Shown here: positions 38,342-39,490 of the stretch, piece after piece
How positions within the stretch are numbered: the stretch's first letter is position 1
Layout: every line of letters starts with the position of its first letter
From: Novosphingopyxis iocasae
GTDB taxonomy: Bacteria > Pseudomonadota > Alphaproteobacteria > Sphingomonadales > Sphingomonadaceae
DNA length: 64,000 bases
Assembly (NCBI RefSeq): GCF_014334095.1
Contig: NZ_CP060495.1
Span: forward strand, 1,945,001-2,009,000
Direction of reading: 5' to 3'
Program-made: the position numbers and the translations under genes
Notes under the pieces: model-generated
The model's input: only the letters and a program-made list of their open reading frames with translations
The model's database searches: none
Told to the model about the DNA's origin: nothing

Positions 38342-38914
38342 ATGACGCGTTCCGTTACCCGCTCCGCTTTCCTGCTGGCCCCTCTTCTGGCCGCCACGCT
38401 GACCCTATCCTGCTGCGTCGCGCCGGAGCGCGAACAGGCACCGGAAACCACCCCCGTGGCGGTGCGTGCCGCGCCCACGCCTCAGCCCACCCCCACGCCC
38501 ACCCCGACGGTGGAGCTATCGGGCGAGTGGACCGAATGGCCCGCTAGTGCGGGTGAATGGATCTATCGTCAGGATGGGCGCGGCAGCATTGCGCTGTTCG
38601 GCATGGCCAACGAAGACGCTGAGCTGACGCTGCGATGCGACCGGAATGCGCGCCGGATCTTCCTGACGCGCGCGGGCGCGGCGAACACGCCGGTGCCGCT
38701 CACTATCCGCACCACGTCTGGCGCGCAAAGCTTCACCGCCCAGCCGACGGGGGGAGAGCTGCCCTATCTCGGCATTGCGCTGGCGCCGACGGACATGATT
38801 CTGGACCGGATGATCTACAGCCGCGGGCGCTTCCTGGTGGATGGCGGCGGCGCACCACTGGTGGTGCCGAGCTGGCCGGAAATCGCGCGCGTCGTGGAGG
38901 ATTGCCGCGCCTGA
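38342..38914 (+). CDS. Lipoprotein with Pro-Thr linker, unknown function
   Basis: A 190-residue lipoprotein (LTLSC lipobox, Cys about 24-25). A Pro/Thr repeat linker (PTPQPTPTPTPTVELSG) leads to a beta-rich domain with GSIALFGMANEDAELTLRCDRNARRIFLTRAGA, which resembles domains found in many sphingomonad exported proteins, and a C-terminal IARVVEDCRA whose cysteine may pair with the one in LRCD. No enzyme motif is visible. It is divergent from tlyA. Confidence 0.72.
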   Translation: MTRSVTRSAFLLAPLLAATLTLSCCVAPEREQAPETTPVAVRAAPTPQPTPTPTPTVELSGEWTEWPASAGEWIYRQDGRGSIALFGMANEDAELTLRCDRNARRIFLTRAGAANTPVPLTIRTTSGAQSFTAQPTGGELPYLGIALAPTDMILDRMIYSRGRFLVDGGGAPLVVPSWPEIARVVEDCRA

Positions 38915-39102
38915 AGCGCTGGAATGCGGCCTGACGTAACAGACACGCAATGAAAAAGCGCCGGAGTTACCCGACGCGACACAGACTGCGTGTTCTGACG
39001 CCAAAAAAAGAAAATTCAAGACTTGCATCGAAAGTGCATCTGACTCACCTTGCCGATGTGGAGGGCAAAATGATGCACACCATATTTGAGTTTCAACAAG
39101 CG

Positions 39103-39116
39103 AAAGGAGGTGATCC
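39103..39116 (+). promoter_or_regulatory. Shine-Dalgarno sequence complementary to 14 nt of the 16S 3' end
   Basis: AAAGGAGGTGATCC is fully complementary to the conserved 3' terminal GGATCACCTCCTTT of 16S rRNA, far longer than other ribosome sites in this window (typically 4-7 nt). It precedes the ATG at 39118 with 7 bp between GGAGG and ATG. Confidence 0.85.
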
Positions 39117-39117
39117 G

Positions 39118-39174
39118 ATGTCTCATGGTTCAGCTAAGGGGTCGGATAATTCCGTTCGGGAGACTGCCCGCTGA
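39118..39174 (+). CDS. 18-codon micro-ORF with extreme ribosome binding site
   Basis: The peptide would be MSHGSAKGSDNSVRETAR, polar and basic, with no signal or membrane character. The initiation site is the strongest possible match to anti-SD. The frame is also open upstream (in-frame ATGs at 38950, 39071 and 39074), so a longer N-terminus is conceivable but is not needed given the SD. A rho-independent terminator ends the unit 130 bp downstream (39265-39306), so the RNA would be about 250-350 nt. It may encode a micro-peptide, a leader, or a regulatory RNA with a decoy ribosome site. I do not recognise a described family. Confidence 0.55.
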   Translation: MSHGSAKGSDNSVRETAR

Positions 39175-39490
39175 CGCGCCGGCGTTCACGCCAAGAACAA
39201 TAAAGCGTTAGCCGATAAGGCCTATCTTCCGGCAGCGGACACTTCCGACCGCTGACCATGTTCTGGGGCCGCCCCGTTGCCGATGAGGCGCGAGGTGGCC
39301 CCTTTTCATGTCCGGCATCCGCATTTCGCCTTTGCCTGCTCCGCCCCGCGCTTAGCGCTTGCCGGGAAACGCTTTTGTCCGTCGTCGCTGATCGGCCGCT
39401 GATCGAAAGCGGCATGGACCCGCCGGACCATCGCGTTAAAGCCCAGCCTGCGCAATTTTCTATCATCATAACTACCAAGGTCTCCCCCTC
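39175..39490. other. Intergenic region before sppA
   Basis: 316 bp hold the 3' part of the micro-ORF transcript, its terminator at 39265-39306 and then about 180 bp upstream of sppA. An AT-rich stretch (TTTTCTATCATCATAAC, 39456-39472) just before the sppA start could carry the promoter -10. An open frame at 39258-39494 has no ribosome site or family features. Confidence 0.4.
39265..39306 (+). terminator. Rho-independent terminator of the micro-ORF unit
   Basis: GGGGCC (39265-39270) and GGCCCC (39297-39302) close a stem that is followed by TTTT. The 26-nt interior can form further GC pairs. Confidence 0.75.

What the first reader, a model, noticed from the sequence alone, without database searches (positions are those of the whole stretch)
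39060..39306. Terminator-ended micro-gene with a 14-nt perfect anti-SD match
AAAGGAGGTGATCC at 39103-39116 is complementary to the whole 3' end of 16S rRNA, and 7 bp after its GGAGG an 18-codon frame starts (MSHGSAKGSDNSVRETAR). A rho-independent terminator follows at 39265-39306. So an RNA of about 250-350 nt seems dedicated to this micro-ORF. Such a long SD is rare: it may give very high initiation, stall ribosomes, or act as a decoy for 16S 3' ends. It could be a micro-peptide, a leader peptide or a dual-function sRNA.
Basis: partly seen in the sequence, partly recalled or inferred. Interest (0 to 1): 0.7.

Follow-up and report, generated by a model that had tools for sequence, protein, structure and literature searches.

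The report
Tiny translated RNA of Alphaproteobacteria
A roughly 200-letter RNA gene, found in many alphaproteobacteria, carries a perfect 15-letter docking site for the ribosome and a mini-gene of 14-31 codons whose length is kept by evolution but whose peptide is not, which suggests that ribosome traffic on the RNA, rather than the peptide, is what matters.

Summary
AAAGGAGGTGATCC sits at 39103-39116 (15 nt with G39102), is unique in the 3.19-Mb genome, and is followed by an 18-codon ORF (39118-39174) and a terminator (39265-39306). It is a divergent homologue of Rfam RF01867 (CC2171, a Caulobacter sRNA of unknown function): E 6e-7, full length, but below Rfam's cut-off. The gene is usually single-copy and recurs in 116 genomes of the window's family and in 124 of 387 sampled Alphaproteobacteria; none was found in other proteobacteria by exact pattern. 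Its parts recur too: the 15-mer (94 of 121 keep 15/15 pairs with the 16S 3' end), an RTG start one base later, a short ORF, a covarying long-range helix starting at codon 3, and a terminator; many lineages also show a sigma-70-like promoter. Neighbouring genes differ between lineages, so it is no leader. The stop falls in codons 14-33 in 62/62 sequence clusters (15.9 expected), yet pN/pS is about 1 or more: the ORF is kept, the peptide is not. Best reading: a small translated RNA in which ribosome loading, not the peptide, does the work (mechanism inferred, about 0.45). Rivals: micropeptide mRNA, 30S decoy. The output is unknown.

The parts
39102..39116 (+). Extended Shine-Dalgarno, GAAAGGAGGTGATCC, complementary over 15 nt to the 16S rRNA 3' end GGATCACCTCCTTTC
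39118..39174 (+). 18-codon ORF (MSHGSAKGSDNSVRETAR) with its stop codon; length and frame conserved, peptide not
39124..39134 (+). 5' arm of long-range helix P1 (CATGGTTCAGC, codons 3-6)
39251..39260 (+). 3' arm of P1 (GCTGACCATG); nearly invariant in the family, covaries with the 5' arm between lineages
39135..39250 (+). Region enclosed by P1 (ORF 3' half, stop codon, inner hairpins); some pairs covary in the family
39265..39306 (+). Rho-independent terminator (stem 39265-39302, T-run 39303-39306)
39094..39302 (+). Match to Rfam RF01867 (CC2171), model 1-159/159, 39.1 bits (cut-off 75), E 6e-7
39022..39051 (+). Tentative promoter (CTTGCA ... CACCTT); weak, read by eye from the sequence. Relatives show a sigma-70-like promoter upstream, about 63 nt from the SD in sphingomonads and about 14 nt in most other lineages
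   Evidence: not found by the stricter scan

Best explanation
The locus is a stand-alone small RNA gene, a divergent homologue of the Caulobacter sRNA CC2171, and it is in effect a minimal mRNA: short leader, maximal Shine-Dalgarno, a 14-31-codon ORF, and a structured body closed by helix P1 and a terminator. Proposed mechanism: the SD captures 30S subunits very tightly through up to 15 bp with the mature 16S 3' end. Initiation and elongation necessarily open P1, because its 5' arm is codons 3-6, and the inner hairpins. The RNA therefore has a folded, ribosome-free state and an opened, ribosome-loaded state. The act of translation over a fixed short distance is under selection, not the peptide, so the RNA would work as a ribosome-gated riboregulator whose activity or lifetime reports translation-initiation capacity. 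SHOWN: homology, conserved SD, ORF length, structure, terminator, absence of shared synteny, absence of detectable peptide selection. INFERRED: that it is translated, that translation gates the structure, and that the gated state has a regulatory output (the target is unknown).
For: Homology and spread. The extended SD is kept beyond what initiation needs: 94 of 121 matches keep 15/15 pairs and 117 at least 14; at the A of GATC all 17 changes are A to G, which keeps a G-U pair. Homologues found by BLAST or the Rfam model rather than by pattern also show this change. ORF: stop within codons 14-33 in 62/62 sequence clusters against 15.9 expected in shuffles and 19 and 14 in the other two frames; 55 of 60 sphingomonad copies stop at codon 19 although the codons after it are almost random. 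Peptide not selected: pN/pS 0.86-1.5 in five lineage groups, not consistently below the other frames (also 27). P1: own arms pair better than arms swapped between lineages; RNAalifold finds P1 in a broad set with changes on both sides; P1 is in the window's predicted fold. Own transcription unit: promoter-like sites in 96 of 194 against 23 shuffled, clustered about 14 nt before the SD; terminators in 186 of 194; no shared neighbours. Expression in a relative: RNA-seq gave a 215-nt product for the RF01867 candidate MH_s33 of Mesorhizobium huakuii (PMC5596092).
Against: No ribosome-profiling or proteomic evidence was seen for this locus or its homologues; the Caulobacter ribosome-profiling paper says two earlier ncRNAs are translated but does not name them in the passages read (PMC4117421). 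No target or output is identified. pN/pS on 14-25 codons with RNA-level constraint is a weak test, so modest peptide selection could be hidden. A 15-nt SD is not unique to this family: in viral contigs about ten of 16 pattern matches do not show the element and most of those head ordinary longer ORFs. Rhodobacteraceae deviate: the SD is predicted sequestered and P1 as defined is not formed, and the Bradyrhizobium set also lacks P1 in the ensemble, so the switch architecture is not uniform.
Confidence: 0.45

Rival explanations
1. Micropeptide mRNA: the RNA exists to make large amounts of an 18-residue peptide; the long SD gives maximal initiation and the structure protects a short mRNA.
For: ORF always present and short; strong SD; within lineages peptides look alike, e.g. 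MSHGSA, VSRVILERGVGT, VSxxKRCHLAGIAR. The Rhodobacteraceae group has a slightly positive in-frame substitution score.
Against: No amino-acid constraint detected in any lineage group (pN/pS about 1 or more). Peptides of different lineages share little beyond the second-codon Ser. Nucleotides are invariant at third positions too in codons 1-5.
Confidence: 0.27
2. 30S decoy or titrator: the 15-nt site clamps the 3' end of 16S rRNA so firmly that it holds free 30S subunits, lowering initiation elsewhere under some condition. With all 15 bp formed the start codon, one base away, may not reach the P site (inference).
For: Complementarity runs through the whole spacer up to 1 nt before the start codon and is kept by wobble changes; predicted -28 kcal/mol.
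Against: A decoy needs no ORF, yet ORF length is strongly conserved. One gene copy would need very high RNA levels to titrate ribosomes. Abundance is unknown.
Confidence: 0.13
3. Trans-acting base-pairing sRNA with incidental translation (dual-function sRNA in the classical sense), its seed lying in the P1 3' arm or inner loops.
For: Rfam class sRNA; strong terminator; nearly invariant GCTGACCATG in the family.
Against: The invariant segment is explained by pairing within P1; no targets were sought; ORF conservation would be unexplained unless translation regulates the sRNA.
Confidence: 0.12
4. Leader peptide/attenuator of the downstream gene (sppA in the window).
For: ORF followed by a terminator; sppA lies downstream on the same strand.
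Against: sppA follows in only 3 loci; others have ilvE, arfB, rnr or oppositely oriented genes; no run of one amino acid in the peptides.
Confidence: 0.03

Closest known systems
Rfam RF01867, CC2171 (Caulobacter sRNA; candidate MH_s33 in Mesorhizobium huakuii, PMC5596092)
   Same: Same order of parts: CAAC leader, GAAAGGAGGTGATCC, RTGTCTCAT, P1, inner hairpins, terminator; full-length match to the model
   Different: Window scores 39.1 bits, under the 75-bit cut-off; filed in Rfam as an sRNA, and no mention of an ORF or of the 16S complementarity was found in the papers searched here
Translated/dual-function sRNAs such as rnTrpL/peTrpL of Sinorhizobium and Pos19 of Rhodobacter (PMC10117765, PMC5036791)
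   Same: Short structured transcript carrying a short ORF, in Alphaproteobacteria
   Different: rnTrpL comes from an attenuator, is leaderless and its peptide has its own function; here own gene, extreme SD, no peptide conservation, no shared downstream gene
Extended SD motifs (Staphylococcus aureus, PMC13009471)
   Same: SD pairing extends beyond the canonical core
   Different: There two additional pairs are described at many start sites of ordinary genes; here 15 contiguous possible pairs in one conserved small RNA gene of another phylum

Membership tests
Rfam RF01867 (CC2171) | Score at or above the curated gathering cut-off (75 bits) | tested here: not met
   39.1 bits; only 9 of 289 sampled alphaproteobacteria exceed it. 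Hence called a homologue, not a formal member
Rfam RF01867 (CC2171) | Significant full-length alignment to sequence and structure model | tested here: met
   E 6e-7, model 1-159 of 159; Caulobacter control positive
Rfam RF01867 (CC2171) | Outer helix P1 (CAUnGUC/GACnAUG) before a terminator hairpin | tested here: met
   CATGGTTCAGC/GCTGACCATG in the window
Rfam RF01867 (CC2171) | Expressed as a discrete small RNA | not testable with these tools
   No RNA-seq for this genome; 215-nt product reported in M. huakuii
Dual-function sRNA | Contains a translated ORF | tested here: inconclusive
   Selection on ORF length and frame; translation itself not observed
Dual-function sRNA | Regulates target RNAs by base pairing | not tested
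   No target search was made
Leader peptide / attenuator | Conserved same-strand downstream gene | tested here: not met
   101 of 172 downstream genes on the opposite strand; neighbours differ by lineage
Leader peptide / attenuator | Run of codons for one amino acid or a conserved arrest peptide | tested here: not met
   No such run in the listed peptides and no conserved C-terminus across lineages

The most novel reading that the evidence does not exclude
A widespread alphaproteobacterial sensor of free, mature 30S subunits: the 15-nt clamp reads the finished 16S 3' end, and passage of a ribosome over a peptide-agnostic ORF toggles the P1 structure, so that the RNA's state reports ribosome supply.
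Probability: 0.15. Interest if true: 0.9.

Novelty: new variant of a known kind. Interest (0 to 1): 0.6.

Why it matters
An RNA filed in Rfam as an sRNA of unknown role turns out, over much of a bacterial class, to carry the strongest possible ribosome-binding site and an ORF whose length but not peptide is selected. If translation is the function, it would be a stand-alone RNA using ribosome loading as its signal, testable in Caulobacter or Sphingomonas. It also warns that conserved micro-ORFs need not encode functional micropeptides.

Tried and rejected
(1) Reverse strand of a 16S gene end: the 15-mer is the complement of the 16S 3' end, but it is not followed by the 16S sequence (CAGCC...) and no rRNA family matches the window. 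(2) Longer in-frame ORF 38950-39174 or an upstream start at 39070/39073: an in-frame upstream start with its own GGAGGG was seen only in the window, L002 and L093. (3) Class-wide sequestration of the SD by an internal anti-SD: tested with duplexes and ensemble folding; only Rhodobacteraceae show it clearly (0.87 paired against 0.68 shuffled, 14 of 14); elsewhere the SD is about as free as, or freer than, shuffles. (4) Stop codon in a hairpin loop: enriched in sphingomonads only (0.50 against 0.09), not in the window's own fold nor clearly in other lineages. (5) The window's MFE changes with the ends folded, so single-sequence folds were not relied on. (7) The primary paper on Caulobacter sRNAs (Landt 2008) is not held.

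Full report
OBSERVATION. The 15-mer is unique in the 3.19-Mb genome, and the next-best sites in the window have 3 mismatches. The genome's own 16S gene is not readable in the held assembly. In 19 of 142 alphaproteobacterial genomes with readable rRNA the 16S 3' end is GGATCACCTCCTTTC, the exact complement; G073 has both that end and the element.

IDENTITY. cmscan finds one credible relative, RF01867 (CC2171, a Caulobacter sRNA), full length, 39.1 bits, E 6e-7, under the 75-bit cut-off. BLAST finds the locus in 31 of 60 sampled relatives, and the Rfam model in 61 of 289 alphaproteobacteria, 9 above the cut-off, with Caulobacter as the only positive control genome. The pattern GAAAGGAGGTGATCNNRTGTC occurs in 60 of 398 proteobacterial genomes, all of them Alphaproteobacteria; nearly all carry one copy and G071 two. 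With two mismatches allowed it occurs in 124 of 387 alphaproteobacteria, a count that includes some chance matches. In the window's family 116 genomes have it, most with a 27-nt stretch unchanged although 3 mismatches were allowed; the other families of the order show none. Some sphingomonads carry a second, CC2171-like copy.

THE LONG SD. Among 121 matches that keep the GGAGGTG core and the start codon, 94 keep 15 of 15 pairs with the 16S 3' end and 117 keep at least 14. Rows that broke the core or the start were left out by me as likely chance, so the invariance of the core is by construction; only the flanking positions are informative. There, all 17 changes at the A of GATC are A to G, which keeps a G-U pair, and 18 of 29 changes at the last C are C to T, which also keep a pair. 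Transitions are expected to be commoner anyway, so this is supportive, not proof. Homologues found by BLAST or by the Rfam model, not by pattern, show the same A to G change. The predicted duplex is -28.0 kcal/mol. The same 15-mer also heads some ordinary genes on viral contigs, so it is a maximal SD, not a signature of this family alone.

THE ORF. Of 194 non-identical homologues, 193 have an ORF of 14-36 codons after the SD; the exception, L135 from Azospirillum, has a 59-codon ORF and lacks the P1 3' arm, so it is probably unrelated. After clustering into 62 sequence groups all 62 have the stop within codons 14-33; dinucleotide shuffles give 15.9, and the other two frames 19 and 14. The groups are not fully independent phylogenetically, so the printed p-value should not be taken literally. 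The peptide is different: codon-position variability, a substitution-score test and pooled pN/pS (0.86-1.5 in the frame, not consistently lower than out of frame) show no purifying selection on amino acids. The first five codons are invariant at third positions in sphingomonads, as expected for RNA constraint.

THE RNA. The P1 arms of a locus pair with each other better than with arms taken from other lineages, and RNAalifold on 26 broad homologues finds P1 with changes on both sides. In the family P1 is nearly invariant, while the terminator and some inner pairs covary. In the window P1 is part of the predicted minimum-energy fold. Terminator hairpins follow in 186 of 194. Promoter-like sites occur in 96 of 194 loci against 23 in shuffled sequence, and most predicted starts lie about 14 nt before the SD; sphingomonads seem to have a longer leader. 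In the window only a weak promoter candidate can be seen. RNA-seq gave a 215-nt product for the RF01867 candidate of Mesorhizobium huakuii (PMC5596092).

CONTEXT. Downstream genes differ: sppA in three loci including the window, ilvE in 30 sphingomonads, arfB in Rhodobacteraceae, rnr in three VSHC-type loci; in my ORF of 172 downstream genes run the other way. These ORF calls are mechanical and in GC-rich DNA can pick the wrong strand, but the marker searches do not depend on them. The element is therefore its own gene and not a leader.

MECHANISM. What is conserved is a maximal ribosome-binding site, a fixed short track of translation, and a structure whose 5' arm lies inside the ORF. The simplest reading is a small RNA whose state is set by ribosome loading; the peptide is a by-product. 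That it is translated and that P1 opens are inferred, and no output is known. Rivals are a micropeptide mRNA, a 30S decoy, or a base-pairing sRNA with incidental translation. Lineage variation argues for caution: in Rhodobacteraceae the SD itself is predicted to be sequestered by a 3' anti-SD-like segment, and P1 is not seen in the Rhodobacteraceae and Bradyrhizobium ensembles.

COMPARISON. It works like a translated regulatory sRNA and is homologous to CC2171 without meeting Rfam's formal threshold. In the papers searched here I found no description of the ORF, of the 16S complementarity, or of the spread. Most subscription papers, including Landt 2008, are not held, so prior description cannot be excluded.

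Noticed in passing
window 39060-39120: In-frame upstream starts (ATG 39070 and 39073) behind GGAGGG would extend the ORF to 33-34 residues; the same arrangement is seen in L002 and L093 but not in other sphingomonad loci looked at.
   Followed up: partly
window 38342-38914: A 190-residue ORF without Pfam match whose homologue lies upstream, same strand, in 53 sphingomonad loci; tlyA (S4 + FtsJ domains) lies beyond it on the opposite strand in 31.
   Followed up: partly
Rhodobacteraceae loci such as L062, L069, L072, L081: 3' part carries CACCTCCT-like anti-SD segments predicted to sequester the SD (0.87 paired against 0.68 shuffled), and the downstream gene is usually arfB, a ribosome-rescue factor.
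   Followed up: partly
G071, G904, G911, G949, G965, G982: These sphingomonad genomes carry two copies: the family type (CATGG) and a CC2171-like type (CATTG).
   Followed up: no
L245-L247, L249-L251, L253-L255 (viral contigs): The same 15-nt SD heads ordinary longer ORFs on viral contigs, several of them closely related copies.
   Followed up: no
L241, L242, L248, L252 (viral contigs): Bradyrhizobium-type copies of the element lie on contigs classed as viral, some near the contig end; they could be host flanks or an integration site.
   Followed up: no
G000, whole genome: No 16S rRNA match in a 3.19-Mb single-contig genome rated 100% complete; probably withheld or masked in the held copy.
   Followed up: partly
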